NCBI GenBank assembly: GCA_027382625.1
Contig: JAJKFJ010020991.1
Location: 1 to 64,000 of the forward strand
From: Tetmemena sp. SeJ-2015
Lineage: Eukaryota > Ciliophora > Spirotrichea > Sporadotrichida > Oxytrichidae
Direction of reading: 5' to 3'
Length of the DNA: 64,000 nt
Made by a program: the position numbers and the translations under genes. Shown piece by piece: positions 1 through 18,006 of the stretch (positions are counted from its first letter, which is position 1; every line of letters starts with the position of its first letter). The notes below the pieces were generated by a model. That model saw only the letters and a program-made list of their open reading frames with translations. It was not told the origin of the DNA and made no database searches.

Positions 1-2047
1 AATAATGATTTCCCTATTATTTCTTAATACTTGAATTAATGTATTTTAATATGATTTATATTTGGGATTAAAAATCTAGAAAATAGTTTAGCGCAAGAGT
101 TTTAATTGGAGAAAGAGAAAGAACCAGACAAACCGCTGCGTTCGATCTCGATTGCAGAGCCAAGGTTATCAACAGATACAACGATCACTACTGGGCAATT
201 TCTTGGTACGCTAACACCGAGAACCAACACTACAGAAGACTTGGCAACTGCATGCATCTCTGAGAAAAAACTTACCCTTGAGGAAAAATCCTCATCCACA
301 TTAAAACCTAAATCCCTTAGTTTCAATAAAATTTAGACCCTAAGTGTTGTGTATATCTCAAACTAATGCTCTAACTTTATAAGAACTAAGCGTATTATTA
401 TTGCTGTTAAAATAAAAATTTATAATACTAATATTGAATTCCAAAAAATAAGCAATAATTAGTTTTTCAGATACTAAAAATTAAGTTTAAATATATATAT
501 AGACACCCAGTCCTTACTTAAAATATAATTTCATAATTAAGCCCTTAAAACAGTTTTAATATTCTATATGGAAAATGAAATGTCATTATTTATTCTTGAG
601 CGAGATTTTCAAACAATAAAAAATTTAATATCATCAGTGGAACTAAAAGTTAAGTTTCTTAATCTGTTTATAGACTTACCTTAATAATTGTGTTCGGGCA
701 GCTTTTTTCCGATTGATAATCGTCATCTTTTTTTTTCTACTACTTTCTCTTCTCATCAGCTTCAAAACAAGGTTTTTGTAATAAAATGGCTTAATGAAAT
801 TTATAGCTCAATTTTTCAAGATTGTTAATCTTGAAACATATTAATACCAAATAATTTGTTGAAAATCTCTTATGAAAATTCTTTCATGTCTGAATTAGCA
901 ATTAAAGATATTCCTAATTAAATAGAACTTAGCTATATTTAAGATTTTTTGAATAAGAGAGTCTATCATTCCTAGTAAGAAGTGATGCCAAGAAAATCCA
1001 GAGGAAAAATCTAGAAAAAGCACCAAAGCAATCCTAGAAATGCTGCAAAAATAATGAAATCTCTGCTAAAAAATTTTGCTATTTTATAAATCTATAAAAT
1101 ATAAACAATATATAATAAATTATTAAAATAAAACATTGGCACCTTTAATTAATGGTGGAAATTGCAAATAATTTTGAAAAATTAATATTTATTAAAAAAT
1201 TGCTATTTAGAAAGAAATAATTACTGCCTATTAAATTTTTCATATGAGTCTTTAAATTAGTTCCAAATGAGCATATTAAAAGTTAAATTATGATAAAACA
1301 CTTACAAATATATTTAAAATCAAATTAAAAATACTTAATATTTCATTTTCCAGTAGCAACATAAGAATAATGCATCGCCATATGATTTGTCTCAAATATA
1401 GTCATTAACTTTTCTCACTCTTTTTCATAGTCTACTTCCATATCTTTGTTCTTGTCTATTTCGGATAATATAACATTTTTAGAATTTCTTATAAAAAATT
1501 TTAGTAAATAATTTTATTAGCATTTCTCATTCCAGGATCTATGAATTTTGAGAAATTTATCAAGATAAATAGCTTGAAGACCTCATTTTCGACTTTTACA
1601 AATAATTTTTCCTTATAAAATAATCTTTAAATTTCGCACTACAAACTCTTTTTTATGAAAATAAAAATCGCAATGCTACATTAATTAGAATTTTTTATGA
1701 AGAATATAGGATAAATCAATGAAATGAGCACATTAATAAAATTTTTCTTTTAAAGATTAAAAAGTATTTTTTTTAATTCTTTTTTAAAATCGATAATTTA
1801 AGCATGATACACACCTTGAAATTGTTTTATATTTAAAAAGTTTAAGAGAATTCTATTTATGTAAAGTTTTGGGAATCCTTTTTCTTAGTTCAGGAGAATA
1901 TCTCGCTTTTATTAGATTTACTCGAATTATATATCAAATTTTTGCCATTTTATGCATTTATTAGCAATAAAGATAACAATCATAAAAAATGGAAATTAAT
2001 TAAAAGTTATTTAAGCTATAACTGCTGATGTTTCAGATTTTTCTTGC
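1..2047. other. AT-rich germline-limited DNA with one base-balanced island
   Basis: Mostly AT-rich, with TGA in all frames and no recognisable gene. The exception is about 105-330, which is clearly richer in GC and open in more than one frame on both strands (74 and 76 codons on the - and + strands in the standard code). That composition fits an isolated MDS or a relic of one, but I cannot choose a frame or a product. Confidence 0.4.
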
Positions 2048-2062
2048 AGCACCAAAGTTTAA
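2048..2062 (+). repeat. Left copy of 15-bp target-site duplication
   Basis: AGCACCAAAGTTTAA occurs here and again at 2613-2627, exactly flanking the GC-rich element. The bases outside and inside the two copies differ, so the repeat is 15 bp. Confidence 0.75.
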
Positions 2063-2612
2063 AATTAATAATAATAATAATAATTAAAGGGAATTAAAGG
2101 GCCCCCGGCATAAATAAGATAGGCCGTGACGTCAATGATATTGCTGTGACGCACTTATCTGACGCACACAAACCTCCCAGCCGAATAGGGATATTAAACA
2201 CGTGGCACCCCGCCACCTCACACTCTGAGCAGAAGCCCCGGCTTCTGCAGACCATCCAAAAAAAACCTAAAAGGAGAAAAAAAATCCGGTAGCTTCGACG
2301 AGAGCAAGTCGCTGCTCCGTAGCGTCTGGCTTCGCTGTCCAGCTGCATGACTGAGTGTTTGCCCATAGATCACATCCCTCCACGCCTACAAGGATTAGGA
2401 GGGTGAGTGGGAACCACTCACCTTTGATTATCTCTCCAGTGAGCAGCTCACCACCTTCCCCAGGGCTTCGGCTGCCATTATCCCTTGCCTCTTTTAAGCA
2501 CTCACCCACCAGCCAACGGATTACCAAACCAGAAAGCCTTCAGGGAAAGGGCGACCGGTGCCTAGTGCCGGTCGTGTGCGTCCTGATTTTAACTTTCTAA
2601 TTTAATAATTTT
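2063..2612. mobile_element. 550-bp GC-rich, hairpin-rich inserted element
   Basis: A GC-rich block in an AT-rich background, bounded on both sides by the same 15-bp sequence (see the flanking repeats). The left end carries an ATA/TAA microsatellite (about 2063-2083), as at the tail of many non-LTR retroelements, which would put the element's sense on the - strand. Four strong hairpins lie inside: 2229-2248 (9-bp stem), 2402-2422 (9-bp stem, 3-nt loop), 2439-2451 (6-bp stem) and 2552-2574 (7-bp stem, 9-nt loop). No long ORF is convincing. The best guess is a SINE-like or other non-autonomous retroposon. A structured RNA retrocopy is possible. I do not recognise a tRNA or 5S head. Confidence 0.6.
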
Positions 2613-2627
2613 AGCACCAAAGTTTAA
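2613..2627 (+). repeat. Right copy of 15-bp target-site duplication
   Basis: Perfect match to 2048-2062. Length and placement fit target-primed insertion of a retroelement. Confidence 0.75.
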
Positions 2628-4340
2628 TTTTGTAAAATAATCAAATCCGATTATTTAGTTTCTTGGAAGCCTACTTTCCTTATCACGAAGCATTTTTAGC
2701 ATTAGAGTTGAAAAATATGTAGGACTTAAGGATTTAGAAAAAATCATATCTAATTTAAATTAAATTAAATTTTCAAAATTACTCTGATCTTAAGAGATAA
2801 AATAAACACACATTTATACAATTCTTATTTTTAAAAAAATTGTTCATTTAAGAGCGAGAAATAATTAAATTGAAGTTATGACTCGGCCTAATCCTGATTA
2901 TAAATTCTGTTTATCTTTTAAGATTCTTTTACACTTTATTAACAATTCCATTTAATGTATTTATTTGAATATGTTATCACAATTATGAGAAGCATATTTT
3001 TCTTCCCTCACATCTTTTTATTTCTCTGAATATGAATGTGTTATCGGAGTTGAAAATAATAAATTTAATAATCGAAATGCTTTCATTATTATATTTAGAA
3101 ATTTAAAATATTTTATTTCCATCTTTTTAAACTAGATATTCTAGTGAAACCCCAAAACCTGTAAAATGAGAGTAATGAAGTTACTCATTTATTAGTATGA
3201 ATAATTATGATTTAATTATTTGAATTTTTCCAGGACCTGTAGCGCTAACCAGTCTGACCACTGGTTTTCCTGAGTGCTGAAGCCTCAAATTGTGCAAAAA
3301 TGAAACTATTAGTTTGACCTGTTAGCTTTTGACCAATGCTGCTCGATGTGAAGGGTTACCCTATAATTATGTTGAGGGTAGTATTAATCTGAGGAGTCAG
3401 CTTGATAAATTGACGCGACATCTATAAATTAGGACCTACTTTCAATATTAAATGGCATGCCCCTCAGTTTTAGTGGAGGCTACCCTCGATTTATGGTAGG
3501 TCCCTCAGTTTTAGTGGTGGGCACTTGATTTTTTGTAGAGACCTCGACAAAATGAATATTGTGTCAAGTTTTATAAGTACCTGCTTTGTTTCGATGAAAA
3601 AATTGTAATAATTCTGAAAGAGTGTGATAAAATTACCAAAACACCATAATATTAAAAGAGAATGAGAAAAGTTGTATCAATTAATTTCTTTATATTATAT
3701 ATGATAAGTAATGAATTTAATATTATCCTTAATTATTCTATATTACATTAAGCAATTCAGTTTCATAGTTTAAAATGCTTTCATTTAAAAAAATAGATAA
3801 TAAATTGAGAAAATAAAAACAATGTGAGAGCTAATTAAGTGTACTTGCATTAAAATTGGATTATATAAATAATAAAACTTAATGTCTTTCAAATATTAAT
3901 GTTTGCTATTTATTGTTATTAGCCTTATTAAATCTAAAAAATTTAATGTTTATGATATCTCAGCTTGAGCTTATAATAATCATTGGCTACAGATAAAAAA
4001 ATGAGCATCATTAAAATTTGTGAAACCCAGATTAAGATTACATAATACTAAGCATTTTTACAGAGAGACAAGCTTAGACAATAAAAGATATGTGTAGAAA
4101 GGCTAACCTTAAGTTAGTAGAAAATTCAATGCCTTTTGTGTCAAAAAAAATATATGGCTACTCTTTTGAAAATATAGGAAGAATACGAATACTTTACAGT
4201 GAATTATTTGTCTTCTAAAATAACAGCTGTTTCATTACTTATCTTAATTATAATTTTGGGTATCAGTAGATAAATATAAATTTGAAAGTTTCCTTAATAC
4301 ATAATTAGAGCAATACAAGAAATACAGCACCCTATTCTCA
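2628..4340. other. AT-rich non-genic DNA
   Basis: No gene is visible. A more balanced patch at 3230-3560 contains an inverted repeat near 3247-3266 (AACCAG/CTGGTT) and a 16-bp direct repeat, CCCTCAGTTTTAGTGG, at 3461-3476 and 3502-3517. The rest is low-complexity AT. Confidence 0.4.
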
Positions 4341-10927: not shown

Positions 10928-13900
10928 ATGAGTCAGTCAGTTAATCCTAATAATTTTAGCATGCTTCAACATCACTCCTTTGTGTCTCCTATGAGAGGCG
11001 GAGGCAGAGACCACCTCAAAGGAAATAACCTCATCGCTGGCAGTTTACTGGGAGCAAACAGCGGCAACGCCCTAATGAATCTTTCATCAGCAGCTGCTGT
11101 GCCTCACAACCACAATTTGACTACTCTCAACCATGCACCTGCAAATGTCTCTCTGGGTCATCATAATATCCTCAGAAGAGATATGAGCAGCTCTCCCTAC
11201 GCTCACAAGTCCAAGCAATACGCTACAGTAAGACAATCTCACTTTTAACAAGCCTTTTAGAAACAAGGAGGGGGATTATATGCTAACTTGTATGGTGCTG
11301 GGTCTAACAATAACTTCGATGAGGACCTTAACAATCGAATGATCTCTTTCAACCTTGTTAAGTAAGTAAGAGATTCTCTTCCTTGATTAGATTTCTACTT
11401 TATGAAGAATTTAAAGTTTAATTCTCAGTCCTGGGATAATCCTAATTTTCAAATTTTCTCTCTAAATACTATCTTACATATATTTTCTAAGTTTGAGTAT
11501 GCTAATAAGTTTATTTCAGCATGGAGGAGCAAGATAGAAAGCTTCAAGAGGTATTTGAGAACGAGAAATTTCACTATAAGAAGAAAGAACAGGCTTCCAA
11601 GGAGATCATTGCAGATATTTCAAAGAGACTTAAGGTAATCTTTAAGCTCCTACTATGTCTATTCTCATTCACTCCTTCGTTTCTCTTGAATAAAATTACT
11701 AAATAATAGCAGTTGATTATTAACCTACTTTGAATAGTTGAGCCAGAAGCGAATAGCTGAGGAGTCGAAGGTGGCGATAGAGTTGAAGAAGCGTTACGAC
11801 ATGATGAAAAAGAAGATGGAGAAGGCATCCAAGGATAAACAAGAGAACCAGTCTTAGCTCAAAAGTCTCTTCACTCTCTTCCAACAGCAACGCAAAGCCC
11901 TCGAGATATCCATCGCCAAGAATAAGACACTGGAAGCTGAAGCCAAAGGCAGAGATGAAGAAAAGAAGCAGCAGGCAGATCAGGTTAGACTGCTTAAAGA
12001 GAGAGTCGACAAACTTACATTGTATAAGTGCTTAATTAACTTGAAGCTGAGAGAGATCAGCAAGCAGCCAGGCATAGAAGAGATAGAGAACAGCTGGAAT
12101 AAGACCTTGAGGACAAACGCTTGCACACAAAACGGATTGAGAATGAGTTGAAGGAAGCTGGGCGTGAAAAGCACACAGTCAAGAAGTAGCTGGAAGAGTA
12201 CGAGAATAAAGTCAAGTAACTTATCTCTGAGTTGGAGCACTCCAGCAAGCAGCACATCCAAGAACTCAACAGCCTTCATTAGGAGTATCGACAGTATAAG
12301 GTCACCTCTCAAGACTTCCAGTAGCGAATAACTCAATACAAGGAAGACCAGCAGAGAGCTTTGCACAGTGAACGAGAGGCCAAGAAGGAAGTGCATAGAC
12401 TGTCTTTGGAGAATGACGAATTGAGGGAGAAGTTTAAGTTCTTCAAACTCAGGTACGAGAAACTAGTAAAGAGGATGGGGGCATCACAGGAGGATCTGCA
12501 AGCCATTGACGATCAAATTATAAACATACTAAGTGATTGATTATGTATGGGCAGCATGACATTGAGTTGGAAGATGAAGAGGCGCATGTGGTTCAATAGA
12601 AAGGCAAGAAGGCAAAGCCTTAAAATGCTACCCAAATTTTTGGAATATTGTAGAAGAAACTGGAGGAGCGTAGCACCCTTTCTAAAAGGTGGTGGACTTG
12701 AGGCAGATTAAAAACGATTCAATTTAGATAGAAGATTATGAGGATAACCAGCATCACTCCAATTTAAATCACAAAAGACTTTGGATTAGGTTTTAATTTT
12801 TGTGAATGACTTGAGCAGAGGAGGTGTGAATTCGGAAGGCAGGTCTGAGAGCAGACTTGATCGCAGAAGAGACGTTCATCACTAAGCCTGATAGTAGTTA
12901 GGTTGCGATAGTAGCTCACAACGAAATAGTGGACAGTTTATTTAAATAATAGTCAACATTGGTAATTAGTTATGAGTATTATGGAGACAACTTCGATGAT
13001 GCAGATAGTGATGCCAACAAGCGAGGCTCCTCAAGCAGCGGAGTTTAAGTTCAGTAAAGAGACAAATCTAGAGACAAGGGCAAGAAGGGAAACAGTGCCA
13101 AGAAGACCAATATCGAGGTGCTTGATGATGAACGACCTCTCGAACAGTAATCCATTCATCATACTTGCTAAAAGTTTGAATATTTTTTCTTGGTTTTACT
13201 ATGAAATGAAGAACCAGAAGCACAAGAGTTCATGCTTATCTTTTGTATATAGTTAAAGTCAGCATCGTGACTCTCAGATATCTTAGTCCGGAGATTTATT
13301 GTCTAAGTTGATAGAGAACATAAATGGCAATCCCTCCCTGTAGAACGAATACATAAGGCAGCAGTTCCAACTCAACCTCATCAAGAGCGAAAGTGACTTG
13401 CACGAATACAAGAACCTTCTCAACTCCATGGCTGCTCTCTTCTACACCAACCACAGAATGAATGATGTCTCCAACTTGTTCGAGCTATGGCGCAAAGCTG
13501 CACTCGCCAAGATGTAGAGAGAGGCATCAGCTTCTATATAATGCAATATTTGATTTTTCTAAACAGGATAAGACTAAGTCTAGTGTCAACAATACTTCCC
13601 AGTCCAACAAGAAAGGCAGCAGCAAGAAGCAGGCAGACGCCAAGAAGAAACCACTCCCACCTGTGGGCATCTAGATTGACACAGACCTCGCCAACTAGGA
13701 AGTTTACGACAACTACAACCATCAATTTAAATATATAGTAATCAATTTGGAGCTGCAAACAATGAAAACGAAAGCCAGGATGAGGATGGCATCTACATGA
13801 TGGGAGGCGATGAGGAGGACGATGAACTCATCAACCAGATGTTGGATAAGGACCAGATCAAGGATCTACAGGCCAAGCAATTCTTAGAGGATCTGAAAGC

Positions 13901-14500
13901 AAGTGGGCCCCTACTCTAAGTAGATCCTCAACTACACCTACCCTCCACTTCTCTACCAGAGAGGCGAAGATGATGATGACAATGAGGGGGAGGACGAAGG
14001 GGACCTTGAACAGCCCCAAGATGAAGAAGAAGAGAATGCACATGAGATACAGTAGATCATCTCATTTAATTTATTGTTACTCAGGAGCAGGCGCAGGTGG
14101 TATTAAGAACGAGGAGTTGTTCAAGAAGCTATCTCAGGTAGTGAGAGACAAAGAGGCCTAGCAGTATGTCGAACAGGTTGACGAAGATGGAAATGTCTAT
14201 CTCGTGGAGGCTTTCGAGAACGAAGATGATGAGGACGGTGAGGGCGATGATGAAGAGGATGGAAAAACTATATGGCCTTTTTATCTTAAATGGCGAAGGG
14301 CAGTATGTATTTTAGGACGATGGAGAGAACGAGTACGATGACCAAGGACATGGATGGCTTAAAATGTTAGTAATTGAATTTAGAATGGGTTTGCTGAGCA
14401 GCAGATAATGATGGACGGAGAGGACATGGAGGACGAAGAGTTCCTCTAAATGATGGAGCAGCAAGCACTTAACCACAAACTGAGATACGGCCAGATCTGA
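10928..14500 (+). CDS. Coiled-coil protein with acidic C-terminal half, unknown function
   Basis: Starts at ATG 10928. An Asn/His/Ser-rich N-terminus leads (after introns at about 11362-11520 and 11635-11738) into a long charged coiled coil rich in Lys, Glu and Gln up to about 12510. It is followed by an Asp/Glu-rich region with short Lys-rich stretches, ending LRYGQI at TGA 14498-14500. Read literally, the coiled coil stops at TGA 12538 and a new ORF starts 2 nt later. A pointer-flanked IES at 12517-12539 removes that stop and fuses both parts in frame, so I call one gene. Other clear IESs are listed separately. Coiled coils of this type are common in ciliary and cytoskeletal proteins; no specific family is assigned. 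Confidence 0.65.
12012..12037. other. IES, 26 bp, pointer AACTT
   Basis: AACTT at 12012-12016 is repeated at 12038-12042. Removing one copy and the AT-rich segment joins ...VDKL to EAERDQQ in the coiled-coil frame. Without removal the frame runs into TGA. Confidence 0.8.
12517..12539. other. IES, 23 bp, pointer ATTAT, carrying an in-frame TGA
   Basis: ATTAT at 12517-12521 is repeated at 12540-12544. Removal gives ...DDQIMYGQHDIELED in frame and deletes the apparent stop, merging two ORFs into one gene. Confidence 0.65.
13721..13740. other. IES, 20 bp, pointer ATCAATTT
   Basis: An 8-bp perfect repeat at 13721-13728 and 13741-13748. Removal joins YNYNHQ to FGAANNENES in frame. Confidence 0.8.
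14259..14289. other. IES, 31 bp, pointer ATGG
   Basis: ATGG at 14259-14262 and 14290-14293. Removal joins an acidic stretch (DDEEDG) to EGQYVFQDDG in frame; unremoved, the frame reaches TGA soon after. Confidence 0.75.
14350..14384. other. IES, 35 bp, pointer ATGG
   Basis: ATGG at 14350-14353 and 14385-14388. Removal gives DDQGHGFAEQQIMMDG in frame. Confidence 0.75.
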
Positions 14501-14750
14501 TCATAAGATTAAGAGATTGAGACTGTGATGATCAACTTTTCTTGAAACTCCTGGGCTGATTTAATCAGCAGCTCAAGGATTACTATAAAGCAACTGCAGG
14601 TTGCTTCTTAGTTATAAAAACCTTCAACTTTATGAATGAATAGAAGTAGATAACAACAACTCACTTCAGTTTCTTCTTTCACTTTACTTTATTAATCGAT
14701 TTTTTGTTAAACCTAATCTTGCACTAAAGTATGCAAATTATTTTTTGTGG

Positions 14751-14864
14751 CTAACACCAAAAGACCTGCTTAATTTTATGTAGTAAGTTTCATCTCTAGT
14801 GATGAGCAAATTGACTAATCTTTTCAATAGAGACAACGCTATTGACACCGCAGATGAGTTTGAT
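14751..14864 (+). other. EF-hand gene MDS 2
   Basis: Begins with the 12-bp pointer shared with 16960-16971 and ends with AGATGAGTTTGAT (14852-14864), shared with 16988-17000. It encodes DLLNF...FNRDNAIDTADEFD. An extra internal IES of about 50 bp near 14770-14825 is likely because the family has no insertion there, but the frame is open either way. Confidence 0.82.
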
Positions 14865-17863
14865 AGTGATAAAAATACTTTGACGCCTCAGGAGAGGGAA
14901 GATTGTTCTACACAGAGTAAGTATTTCATGGGAGCATCACCGCTCAAGCATTTTCCCCTAATTTTGGAGCGATTAGAGCTCCTTGCTAATTATCTTCGAA
15001 TTTCATGGTTTAATTTTAACGGCTAGTTACTTGCAAATCTTGCTTCCCTGCGATCAACCTTACCTCAGAGCTGTCAGCACTCAGAAACTAATTCTTCCAT
15101 TTATATAATTCATTATTTGCAGAGACCTACTTACCCTGTGTCTCCGACAGAATTCCTGCCTTTTGAGGTGGAGAGGCTGCTAGCGAAACTGTTACAGAGA
15201 GAACTCAAGCTCAGCAGAGAATCTGAAAGAATCAAGCAGGAGCTCGCATCCAGATACGACTACAGCCTCGAAAAGCTCTACAAAGATGTCGACGACATCA
15301 ACTATGGCTATGTGGACTCCTCAAATTTGAAGAGATTCTTGATAAGATGCGGAATCCTGCCTAGTGAGGGGTGCTTGGTTTCCATTTTGCGTAGGTTCGA
15401 CCTCGATGCAGATGCCAAGCTAAGCAAGAAGGAATTCATAGAGGGAGTCAAGCCATCTGCTGATGACTTTTCCAAAAGAGCCATCAAGGAACAAAAGGCA
15501 ATTGCTCAATATATTTCATGATGTAAATAAAGATAGCATGATTTCATTTACTCAGAGTAGCATGAGTTAAAGCTCAAGGGTACTATCACCAAGAGGAGGT
15601 AATAACTCACAAAGTGCTGTTAAATCTCAGAGAAGCTACAGTAGAAGTCACACTGCAGACATAACTTCTCCTAATACAAGAGGAAAGAGCTCAAGCTATT
15701 GATATATGCCAATATGGTAAGGGCAATTTGGATTCTAGTAATCTCAAAAACGAGGATCCTCAGCTAGCTTCCATTCTGAAATCTCCTTCCACTCAAGATA
15801 TGAGAGCAAGCTACGATAGATAGAATCATTCACCCTTGAGAATAAATTTTAGGATATGATCCTTAGAACAAGAGCTTGTTGCAAAACCAAGGGTAGTGTA
15901 AATATTGTTGATCAGTCAGAGATAGAAATGGAGACGATGATTCAATAAAGTTTCGTTAATTAATATTAATGTTTAATGGATGATAAAGAAGGATCCCTGA
16001 TATATTTGATTAGAAACTGCTTCAGAGACATCATTGCAATTGAGAATAGTTTGGAGTTGCAAAAGAGAGAGCTTGCCTTGAGAGGAGATTTCACTTTGGC
16101 TGGTGCTTTCAATCTATTCACTGGCTACAGCTAAGATAGACTAAGTGCTGATGATATTCGGTCTGCTTTCGACAGACTAGGAGTGATAGTATTGATGTGA
16201 TGTGGTGTAAGTTGTTCGTGGAAAGGTATGATGCTGACAGAGATGGAAGACTAGGATTCTGGGAATTCGCAAACTCTCTCCTTCCAGTTGAAACCTTAGT
16301 GAGAGATGATCTTGAGCGCAGAAGAGCTCAGTTTGACTTGAGCTACGAAACTAATGAACTACTCAGAAGAACTTTCAGAAAGCTTGTTGATTCAGAATCC
16401 ATGGTTGAAAATCATCAAAAAAATTTTTTGCTTGGTTTTAGTTTCAAGCGAGCATTTGAAAGCTATGGACATAGAATATATAACTATATGCTAGATTTTT
16501 TAAGAATGTCAAGTGCAACCATTCATTTCTACTATGTTAAATCTGCTCAAGCAAGATCCAGTCGAGCTTGAATGCTTTATTAGAAGATTAGCCCTTTGTT
16601 TCATTTCGCACTATTCACAAATAGAGTTAGTTGAAATTGATAGCATTAAATAAAGTTAACAGTAGAGTGTATCAGTTGGAGAGTGTTTTAAATTTTAAAT
16701 GGCTTTATTTATAATTTAAAATTACCCAGCTTAAAAAGGGCTGCCCTACCACTCCTTAACTTATCTATATTGATTCCTGTACCTTCAAATGCAGCGACAG
16801 AGTTCCTCAATGTCCACTCAGAAGAAGTTGGCGAAGCTTTTCCACTACACGGGGGAGTCAGAGCTCCAACTTGAAAACATGAGGCAGAACTTGTGTAAAG
16901 CTAGTGCCTTCGAGCCCTATGCCTCCTTCCAAAGACTAGATAGACTCAGCAAGGGCTACCTAACACCAAAACATTAATATGCGCTCTAGATGAGTTTGAT
17001 GCCAAACTGCTTATCAAATACTTTGGAAATTCAAGCTACAAAATATGAAGGTCTATATGACTTGCAATTAAGAGCTCAAGCAAAAAAGCGTCTTTAATGA
17101 AGTCTAATAAAAAGAACAGCATTTTATTTTTAGCGATCCCCTTGCCTCTGAATATAAAACTTTCCAATAGAACGACAATTTAAATCATTCTCTCAACTAA
17201 TTACCCCTTGAGAATGAAAAGTCTTGCTTCATAAAATAACCTGCTCTCAGCAGGATATGATGCAATCAAAATGATCAAAGCCAGGGAAAGAATCCACTTA
17301 GTCCTAGGGGTGGAGCATCTGTAGCTGATCTGAGCAGAAGCGAGTTAAATAAGAGCAATGGTGATCACAGATCAAGTATGGACAAGAGCAGCTACTCTAG
17401 GACGCAGCTCAATGAATCCCAAATGAGACAATCAGCCAGAGATAGAACACGTTTTCTCCATTAATTCATCTCATTATATGATAAGCTTAATCTGATTATA
17501 AATAAACTTCACATATCTAGCTTCATCAAATATATCTGCCTTAAATTTTCAGGTTATCTTAACGTGAGATCAGGAGAATGGTCAATAGTTTTTAGCTTGT
17601 GCTTTGGGAGTGAGCTCCTCAAAGAACTCTGGGAGTGAAACTCTGCCATTGAGTTTGTCCTTGTTGAATCTTCTATTTTCAGGGTAATTTTAGACTTGAG
17701 CAGAATGGAGGAATGAATGGTTATCTAAGTTGTTTAAATAAACAGTTCGCTTGAACTCATTGTTTGTGAGGAATCCTCTGCCAAGCCAGTCCAAAGCGTC
17801 AAAGCCCTTTCTGAGGGAGACTGAACTCTCTCTTTAAATTCTCTATCTCAGGTTTTCAACCAT
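14751..17863 (+). CDS. Scrambled EF-hand repeat protein gene, nine MDSs, odd-even order, last MDS inverted
   Basis: Encodes a protist-type multi-EF-hand protein with paired EF-hand-like units. Recognisable stretches are FEPYASFQRLDR (unit 1), RRFDLDADAKLSKKEF (unit 2), RYDADRDGRLGFWEF (unit 3) and RFNKDKLNGRVSLPEF with terminal EELTPK (unit 4). Ser-rich linkers join the units. Family order is 1-2-linker-3-4, but on the germline DNA units 2, linker parts and 3 come first, then unit 1 and other linker parts, then unit 4 on the - strand. Eight pointers (12, 13, 8, 12, 6, 11, 11 and 11 bp) link the nine pieces and every junction is in frame, giving one protein of very roughly 650-700 residues. 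Start is ATG 16789; stop is TGA at 17584-17582 (- strand). Several units have canonical Asp/Glu calcium ligands, so calcium binding is likely; the cellular role is unknown. Strand is given as that of eight of nine MDSs. Confidence 0.88.
15029..15696 (+). other. EF-hand gene MDS 4
   Basis: Carries unit 2 and the first Ser-rich linker. The join to MDS 3 reads YDLQILLPCDQPYLRAV. Internal IESs: 15082-15119 (pointer CAGA) and 15513-15540 (pointer ATTTCAT). Ends with AAGAGCTCAAGC (15685-15696), shared with 17070-17081. Confidence 0.88.
15724..15843 (+). other. EF-hand gene MDS 6
   Basis: Encodes a linker from NLDSSNLKNEDPQLAS to NHSPLR. Its 6-bp left pointer (CAATTT) is the shortest in the gene; its right pointer is CCCTTGAGAAT (15833-15843), shared with 17205-17215. 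Separated from MDS 4 by 27 bp and from MDS 8 by 73 bp. Confidence 0.8.
15917..16411 (+). other. EF-hand gene MDS 8
   Basis: Encodes unit 3. Internal IESs: 15936-15978 (pointer GATGAT) and 16183-16196 (pointer GTGAT, 14 bp). Ends with ATGGTTGAAAA (16401-16411), whose reverse complement lies at 17853-17863. Confidence 0.88.
16412..16788. other. Spacer between the even and odd MDS clusters
   Basis: Starts AT-rich just after the MDS 8 pointer but has an open, partly plausible frame in its first 240 bases (about 16430-16660). Since the EF-hand gene does not need it, this may be eliminated sequence that still resembles coding DNA, or an extra piece I could not place. Confidence 0.35.
16789..16971 (+). 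other. EF-hand gene MDS 1
   Basis: Starts at ATG and covers the N-terminus to GYLTP. Ends with pointer CTAACACCAAAA (16960-16971), which also begins MDS 2 at 14751. The join reads KGYLTPKDLLNF, a normal EF-hand exit helix. Confidence 0.85.
16988..17067 (+). other. EF-hand gene MDS 3
   Basis: Begins with the 13-bp pointer of MDS 2 and ends with ACTTGCAA (17060-17067), shared with 15029-15036. An internal 25-bp IES at 17016-17040 (pointer AAATA, repeated at 17041-17045) must go to give DEFDAKLLIKYEGLYDLQ. Confidence 0.82.
17070..17181 (+). other. EF-hand gene MDS 5
   Basis: Starts only 2 bp after MDS 3 ends. Encodes linker KSSSKKASLMKSNKKNSDP after removal of a 14-bp IES at 17118-17131 (pointer AGC). 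Ends with CAATTT (17176-17181), shared with 15724-15729. Confidence 0.8.
17205..17447 (+). other. EF-hand gene MDS 7
   Basis: Encodes a Ser/Arg-rich linker containing NPLSPRGGASVADLSRSE. Internal 14-bp IES at 17257-17270 (pointer ATGAT). Ends with CAGAGATAGAA (17437-17447), shared with 15917-15927. Confidence 0.85.
17582..17863 (-). other. EF-hand gene MDS 9, inverted
   Basis: Read on the - strand from 17863. The join with MDS 8 reads SESMVENLRQRIQRESS in frame. Encodes unit 4 to EELTPKAQAKNY and TGA at 17584-17582. A further IES may lie within about 17660-17740, where the reading departs from the family. Confidence 0.85.
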
Positions 17864-18006
17864 TTCAAAGCATTATTCTAAGAACAACTTGACATCTTCG
17901 ATATCGCAAACCACTCCTAGTCAGGATAAATTTACTTTAAATTAATGTGTGTCGGGTGTTAAAGGGATAAAGATAGAACTAAAATTAGTCTTATATTTCA
18001 GAAAAA

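What the first reader, a model, noticed from the sequence alone, without database searches (positions are those of the whole stretch)
14751..17863. Odd-even scrambled EF-hand gene solvable from pointers: nine MDSs, the last inverted
The germline order is 2-4-6-8 / 1-3-5-7 / inverted 9. Shared pointers: 1-2 CTAACACCAAAA (16960/14751), 2-3 AGATGAGTTTGAT (14852/16988), 3-4 ACTTGCAA (17060/15029), 4-5 AAGAGCTCAAGC (15685/17070), 5-6 CAATTT (17176/15724), 6-7 CCCTTGAGAAT (15833/17205), 7-8 CAGAGATAGAA (17437/15917), 8-9 ATGGTTGAAAA (16401, and reverse complement 17853-17863). Every junction keeps the frame and gives the family's EF-hand order. Read linearly the region is nonsense. This is direct evidence of germline DNA that must be reordered, with a hairpin-like inverted end.
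Basis: partly seen in the sequence, partly recalled or inferred. Interest (0 to 1): 0.96.

Follow-up and report, generated by a model that had tools for sequence, protein, structure and literature searches.

The report
Fifteen-piece odd-even scrambled ciliate EF-hand gene
In this stretch of likely ciliate germline DNA, one gene for a predicted calcium-binding (EF-hand) protein lies in fifteen out-of-order pieces, four of them backwards, whose matching end tags join them on paper into one intact 682-codon reading frame; the cell would have to cut and rejoin the DNA this way to use the gene, as related ciliates are known to do for thousands of genes.

Summary
The finding is real, but its map is incomplete and one junction is wrong. 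All 8 of 8 stated pointers exist at the stated places. The nine-piece join does not stay in frame. Guided by a Stylonychia lemnae homologue, I find 15 scrambled blocks: evens 2-4-6-8-10-12-14 (14751-16589), odds 1-3-5-7 (start codon 16789; to 17447), and odds 15-13-11-9 inverted (stop 17582, to 17922). They are tied by 14 pointers of 6-13 nt. With six conventional IESs and two introns removed they give one 682-codon open frame, 61.5% identical to the homologue over 681 columns. The pointer order is exactly 1..14, 1..7, 14..8, a repeat word plus a return word, a published Oxytricha pattern (PMC5940158). Ten of 12 multi-match contigs of this family in the same genome are colinear; the closest paralogue shares both intron positions. 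Replaced-MDS and IES lengths correlate (rho 0.70), but decayed MDS sequence is not detectable. No macronuclear sequence was available. New member of a known kind.

The parts
16740..16971 (+). Block (MDS) 1; start codon at 16789; 5' limit arbitrary (telomere addition site unknown); ends with pointer 1|2 CTAACACCAAAA (16960-16971)
   Evidence: homologue residues 1-54 at 16810-16971
14751..14864 (+). Block 2; pointers CTAACACCAAAA (14751) and AGATGAGTTTGAT (14852-14864); contains intron 1
14783..14830 (+). Intron 1 (48 nt, GTAAG..TAG)
   Evidence: same position and phase as a 31-nt intron in the colinear paralogue L014
16988..17025 (+). Block 3; pointers AGATGAGTTTGAT and AAATACTTTG (17016-17025)
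14873..15696 (+). Block 4; pointers AAATACTTTG (14873-14882) and AAGAGCTCAAGC (15685-15696); holds intron 2 and conventional IESs
14917..15026 (+). Intron 2 (110 nt in germline DNA, GTAAG..CTAG)
   Evidence: paralogue L014 has a 29-nt intron at the same position
14923..14999 (+). Likely conventional IES (77 nt, pointer ATTTCATGG) inside intron 2; its removal leaves a 33-nt intron; not needed for the reading frame
15082..15119 (+). Conventional IES, 38 nt, pointer CAGA
15513..15540 (+). Conventional IES, 28 nt, pointer ATTTCAT
17070..17181 (+). Block 5; pointers AAGAGCTCAAGC and CAATTT (17176-17181; 5|6 position ambiguous)
17118..17131 (+). Conventional IES, 14 nt, pointer AGC
15724..15843 (+). 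Block 6; pointers CAATTT and CCCTTGAGAAT (15833-15843)
17205..17447 (+). Block 7; pointers CCCTTGAGAAT and CAGAGATAGAA (17437-17447)
17257..17270 (+). Conventional IES, 14 nt, pointer ATGAT
15917..16185 (+). Block 8; pointers CAGAGATAGAA and GACTAGGAGTG (16175-16185)
15936..15978 (+). Conventional IES, 43 nt, pointer GATGAT
17882..17922 (-).
16209..16411 (+). Block 10; pointers AAGTTGTTC and ATGGTTGAAAA (16401-16411)
17747..17863 (-).
16443..16527 (+).
16473..16502 (+). Conventional IES, 30 nt, pointer AGAAT; frame-neutral, so supported by homology only
17695..17722 (-).
16542..16589 (+).
17540..17675 (-).

Best explanation
This is a scrambled, likely germline (micronuclear) gene of what is likely a hypotrich ciliate: fifteen blocks lie in the order 2-4-6-8-10-12-14 / 1-3-5-7 / inverted 15-13-11-9, 14 shared pointer repeats tie them into one open 682-codon EF-hand reading frame, and the cell likely recombines the DNA at those pointers during macronuclear development. 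Shown by sequence: block order, pointers, open frame, full-length homology and two intron positions shared with a paralogue. Inferred from published ciliate biology: about seven conventional IESs are deleted first, then template-guided joining alternates between the even cluster and the two odd clusters, switching strand at the seven junctions 8|9 to 14|15, and yields a somatic chromosome of roughly 2.1-2.5 kb without telomeres. Inferred origin: duplication of an unscrambled gene, inversion of the 3' half of one copy, then reciprocal decay of alternate segments.
For: The homologue's segments map to the window out of order and on both strands. The 15-block join gives a single frame from 16789 to a TGA ending at 17582 on the minus strand, 682 aa, 61.5% identity and 772 BLASTP bits to P0001; the eleven-block models scored 747-751 by the same program. 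EF-hand_7 rises from 43.4 bits and 2 stretches (nine blocks plus seven IESs) to 79.4 bits and 4 stretches. All 14 pointers are maximal, and 13 of 14 occur exactly twice in 14601-18000, both strands counted. 13 of 14 are the single longest in-frame open shared word within 45 nt (frame carried over without allowing for nearby conventional IESs). The pointer order 1..14, 1..7, 14..8 has no exception. Gaps are AT-rich: GC 0.29 in the 12 scrambled gaps and 0.20 in the six conventional IESs, against 0.43 in coding sequence. Scrambled pointers average 10.4 nt; the six conventional coding ones are 3-7 nt, in line with the published statement that scrambled pointers are longer (PMC9797194, passages read). 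The closest paralogue in the same genome (C2240) is colinear and has introns at both positions. C4A4 telomere repeats occur in the assembly (67 overlapping matches; the tool's reversed-pattern control is uninformative because the pattern reads the same backwards).
Against: No macronuclear, cDNA or developmental data exist here; a 25-nt unscrambled 1|2 junction was not found in the held assembly with up to 2 mismatches, as expected of a germline assembly but no confirmation. The 5|6 junction is tied among three 6-nt words. Residues from about 260 to 450 are poorly conserved, so the IESs at 15513, 17118 and 17257 rest mainly on frame and pointer. For the duplication origin: 0 of 12 scrambled gaps show a significant remnant of the block they replace (smallest P 0.18 anchored against shuffles, 0.136 local).
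Confidence: 0.95

Rival explanations
1. One reading: 2-4-6-8 / 1-3-5-7 / inverted 9, with pointer 3-4 ACTTGCAA.
For: All eight words are present and seven of them are junctions in the larger map.
Against: The join has stops in all three frames; it leaves homologous segments at 14876-14917, 16443-16589 and 17882-17922 unused.
Confidence: 0.01
2. A rearranged, decayed pseudogene or a misassembled contig, not a gene that the cell reassembles.
For: No unscrambled 1|2 junction was found in the held assembly; a paralogue in the same assembly shows apparent single-base frame breaks (read by eye), so assembly errors may exist.
Against: Decay or misassembly would not be expected to leave 14 maximal repeats at the in-frame joins, 13 of 14 the longest in frame, nor one 682-codon frame with 61.5% identity end to end.
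Confidence: 0.03
3. Two or three separate colinear EF-hand genes (evens, odds, minus-strand odds), each a working unit.
For: Parts of each cluster encode recognisable EF-hand stretches.
Against: Each cluster lacks the segments that the others hold; the longest linear stop-to-stop frame is 272 codons within 14701-17960, 293 if followed upstream to 14640; other family members are colinear in 10 of 12 contigs with two or more matches.
Confidence: 0.01
4. Same scrambled gene, but the odd-even order arose by stepwise recombination between short AT-rich repeats in MDSs and IESs (Chang et al. 2005, as described in PMC9797194), not by duplication and decay.
For: No replaced-MDS sequence is detectable in 12 of 12 gaps; in-register identity beside the pointers is 88 of 336, null mean 88.8.
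Against: Lengths of the 12 replaced blocks and their gaps correlate, Spearman 0.70, P 0.011, which duplication and decay predicts.
Confidence: 0.4

Closest known systems
Odd-even scrambled genes of Oxytricha trifallax, repeat and return words (PMC5940158, passages read; it cites Burns et al. 2016)
   Same: The pointer word here is A B A B-reversed with A=1..7 and B=8..14, the same type as their worked example 12341243; they state that 96% of scrambled O. trifallax chromosomes are explained by such words. Their Table 3 also lists a scrambled two-gene chromosome with EF-hand domain pairs (Contig19385.0, among the loci that do not fully reduce).
   Different: Different gene and map, and a species not named here; no macronuclear chromosome is in hand.
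Scrambled loci of Tetmemena sp., Oxytricha and Euplotes woodruffi (Feng et al. 2022, PMC9797194, passages read)
   Same: Odd-even clusters, MDS/IES pairs flanked by the same pointers, longer pointers at scrambled junctions, length correlation of replaced pairs.
   Different: No residual sequence similarity between the pairs here; the paper reads weaker similarity as a sign of an older locus.
Actin I of Stylonychia lemnae (PMC2394655, passages read)
   Same: Mix of conventional IESs, permuted order and inverted segments; pointers of 3-19 bp in the genes of that study.
   Different: Ten MDSs with three scrambled junctions there; 15 blocks with 14 scrambled junctions here.
EF-hand family protein of Stylonychia lemnae (P0001)
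   Same: Full-length homologue, 61.5% identity over 681 aligned columns.
   Different: Known here only as a protein record; its germline order was not available.

Membership tests
Scrambled germline gene of a spirotrich (hypotrich) ciliate | Coding segments out of order and/or inverted relative to the product | tested here: met
[quoted passage not shown]
   14 of 14 junctions, 6-13 nt; 13 of 14 the single longest in-frame word, 5|6 tied
Scrambled germline gene of a spirotrich (hypotrich) ciliate | Joined segments give one complete frame in the ciliate code (TAA/TAG=Q, TGA stop) | tested here: met
   682 codons, start to TGA
Scrambled germline gene of a spirotrich (hypotrich) ciliate | AT-rich IESs between segments | tested here: met
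   GC 0.29 and 0.20 against 0.43 coding; exception: the 77-nt candidate in intron 2 has GC 0.43
Scrambled germline gene of a spirotrich (hypotrich) ciliate | A macronuclear chromosome with the joined order, capped by C4A4 telomeres | not testable with these tools
   No macronuclear data; one unscrambled junction absent from the held assembly; C4A4 repeats exist in it
Odd-even pattern (repeat and return words) | Pointer list reduces fully to repeat and return words | tested here: met
   1..14 1..7 14..8
Duplication-and-decay origin | Lengths of replaced MDS and replacing IES correlate | tested here: met
   Spearman 0.70, P 0.011, n=12
Duplication-and-decay origin | Replacing IES retains sequence of the replaced MDS | tested here: not met
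   0 of 12 gaps significant; expected of an old locus, but no support
EF-hand protein | EF-hand domains above the Pfam gathering score | tested here: met
   EF-hand_7 79.4 bits against cut-off 30, 4 stretches

The most novel reading that the evidence does not exclude
The locus is a readable fossil of how scrambling begins: one gene was duplicated in tandem, the 3' half of one copy flipped exactly once, and the two copies then eroded in strict alternation, leaving seven direct and seven inverted junctions with no exception, while its sister gene in the same genome stayed in order. Blocks have been shaved to as little as 7 nt between pointers, so assembly must rely on long templates and not on the blocks themselves.
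Probability: 0.4. Interest if true: 0.5.

Novelty: new member of a known kind. Interest (0 to 1): 0.38.

Why it matters
It gives a nucleotide-level map of a heavily scrambled gene, solved from germline sequence plus a homologue alone, with an unscrambled sister gene in the same genome. That makes it a clean test case for how odd-even order arises, and a warning that pointer-only reading of germline DNA misses small blocks: five of fifteen here, two of them only 28 and 41 nt long.

Tried and rejected
Nine-piece join as written: rejected, stops in all frames. Nine pieces plus seven small IESs and one intron: gave an open 668-codon frame but misfitted the homologue around residues 80-100 and near the C terminus; its 7-nt TA IES at 17037-17043 and its 14-nt GTGAT IES at 16183-16196 were dropped in the final model. 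Eleven-block models: open in the 2-, 5- and 14-nt variants, closed at 515 codons without any of them, and gapped against the homologue; the 7-nt AT IES at 16534-16540 was dropped once block 13 was seen. Decayed copies of the replaced blocks inside the gaps: looked likely by eye, not supported (in-register flanks). A gapped flank test gave z 3.0 in favour of such remnants; its four highest scores lie beside the very short blocks 3 and 13, where a neighbouring pointer enters the 30-nt flank. I did not rerun it without them, so I call it inconclusive. The figure of about 1e-26 for the pointer set is not used as a P value, because words and windows were chosen after looking. Papers PMC1805493 (passages) and the rest of the listings were not used further.
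Full report
Observation. The eight pointer words of the finding are all in the window at the stated coordinates. Joined as nine pieces they do not give an open frame under the ciliate code (TAA and TAG read as glutamine): stops occur in every frame.

Guide protein. A search with a provisional joined protein found 5 proteins at E 0.001 or better among the 7,994 candidates scored: a Stylonychia lemnae EF-hand family protein (P0001; 57% identity over 99% of the query), three homologues at 30-45% over 96-100% (P0002-P0004), and one at 34% over 27%. Searching P0001 against the window with tblastn gave segments out of order on both strands: residues 1-54 at 16810-16971, 50-73 at 14748-14867, 69-80 at 16989-17024, 79-92 at 14876-14917, 97-225 at 15120-15506, 462-578 beginning at 16194, and 531-630 at 17863-17585 on the minus strand.

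Final map. Filling the remaining gaps against the homologue, partly by eye, located blocks 9, 12, 13, 14 and 15. The 15 blocks and 14 pointers were then checked by script: all pointers are maximal, and 13 of 14 occur exactly twice in 14601-18000 counting both strands (CAATTT occurs four times). The germline order is 2-4-6-8-10-12-14, then 1-3-5-7, then 15-13-11-9 inverted. Read along the plus strand the pointers run 1..14, 1..7, 14..8. After removal of six conventional IESs and two introns the product is 682 codons from 16789 to a TGA that ends at 17582 on the minus strand, 61.5% identical to P0001 over 681 aligned columns, 772 bits. EF-hand_7 is matched in 4 stretches at 79.4 bits, against 2 stretches and 43.4 bits for the nine-block version with seven IESs. 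Of the six conventional IESs, five have lengths not divisible by three and are needed for the frame; the sixth (16473-16502, 30 nt) is frame-neutral and rests on homology.

Chance. Random 40-nt window pairs from the 64-kb window share a word of 9 nt or more in 0.8% of 19,881 pairs; 13 of 14 junctions do. Enumerating in-frame, locally open shared words of 4 nt or more within 45 nt of each junction, the chosen pointer is the single longest at 13 of 14; at 5|6 three 6-nt words tie, so that join is placed only to within about 15 nt either way. The pointers were found by looking, so I quote no P value for the set.

Introns and the sister gene. The whole-genome search of the 146-Mb assembly found 47 matches to P0001 (a lower bound by the tool's own note). 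Twelve contigs hold two or more matches. At the resolution of these matches ten are colinear on one strand (C2939, C2361, C4173, C2240, C2146, C2744, C2601, C2900, C1288, C1983), this locus is scrambled, and C2645 has one match on each strand 7.5 kb apart and was not followed up. Only C2240 was examined closely. It (L014) is colinear over nearly the whole protein and has GT..AG segments of 31 and 29 nt at exactly the positions of the 48-nt and 110-nt segments that I call introns here. The 110-nt one contains a 77-nt stretch bounded by two copies of ATTTCATGG; removing it leaves a 33-nt intron, close to the paralogue's 29 nt, so it is likely a seventh conventional IES, though its GC content (0.43) is high for one.

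Mechanism. Shown: order, pointers, frame, homology, shared intron positions. Inferred from published ciliate biology: conventional IESs are usually removed first, and permutation and inversion follow (PMC2394655, abstract and passages read); joining is programmed by long non-coding template RNAs (PMC9797194, passage read). The gene would then be assembled by alternating between the even cluster and the odd clusters; the seven junctions 8|9 to 14|15 each switch strand. Chromosome ends are unknown. If the clusters do not overlap, the 3' end lies within the 134 nt of 17448-17581 and the 5' end within 16590-16788. Coding sequence with stop (2,049 nt) and introns of 48 and 33 nt make 2,130 nt, so the predicted somatic chromosome is about 2.1-2.5 kb without telomeres.

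Origin. [quoted passage not shown] Here the 12 testable pairs correlate in length (Spearman 0.70, P 0.011; one-sided permutation P 0.007 in 5,000 shuffles), but 0 of 12 gaps retain detectable sequence of the replaced block and in-register identity beside the pointers is 88 of 336 against a null mean of 88.8. A gapped version of the flank test was raised (z 3.0) but is confounded by neighbouring pointers. The length result favours duplication and decay; the sequence result neither supports nor excludes it.

Comparison and novelty. The pointer word is a repeat word plus a return word, the kind stated to account for 96% of scrambled Oxytricha chromosomes (PMC5940158, passages read). That paper also lists a scrambled chromosome with EF-hand domain pairs. 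Five searches of the paper library showed no listing that I could match to this locus; I saw titles and abstract starts, so I make no claim that it is unpublished. Ciliate code, C4A4 repeats and the Stylonychia homologue point to a hypotrich; the best S. lemnae protein is only about 61% identical, so it is likely another species. Verdict: a correct and striking reading, a new member of a known kind, with a substantially corrected map.

Noticed in passing
L014 (G000:C2240:60500-65000), 941-3108: Colinear paralogue of the same EF-hand gene with what look like conventional IESs only; at least two apparent single-base frame breaks (read by eye), which could be assembly errors or very short IESs; its likely last codons (TPKCPEKPY) lie about 1 kb further on at 4166-4204.
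   Followed up: partly
window 14923-14999: 77-nt segment between ATTTCATGG repeats inside intron 2, with GC 0.43, unlike the AT-rich IESs of this gene; likely an IES nested in an intron.
   Followed up: partly
G000 contigs C2361/C4173 and C2146/C2744: Two pairs of contigs give nearly identical match profiles to P0001, perhaps alleles or recent duplicates, whereas a 301-base piece of the present locus matched only once.
   Followed up: no
G000 contigs C298, C586, C672, C739, C770, C1030, C1301, C4311, C4966 at base 1; C2828:3805-4156: C4A4 repeats at contig starts (telomere-capped contigs or telomere-bearing elements) and a long internal set of C4A4 repeats in C2828.
   Followed up: no
G000:C2645:6656-7147 (-) and 14692-14982 (+): Two family matches on opposite strands 7.5 kb apart; either two genes or another scrambled member.
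   Followed up: no
window 13826-14341: Open frame of 171 codons rich in Asp and Glu just upstream of block 2; perhaps part of another germline gene with IESs.
   Followed up: no
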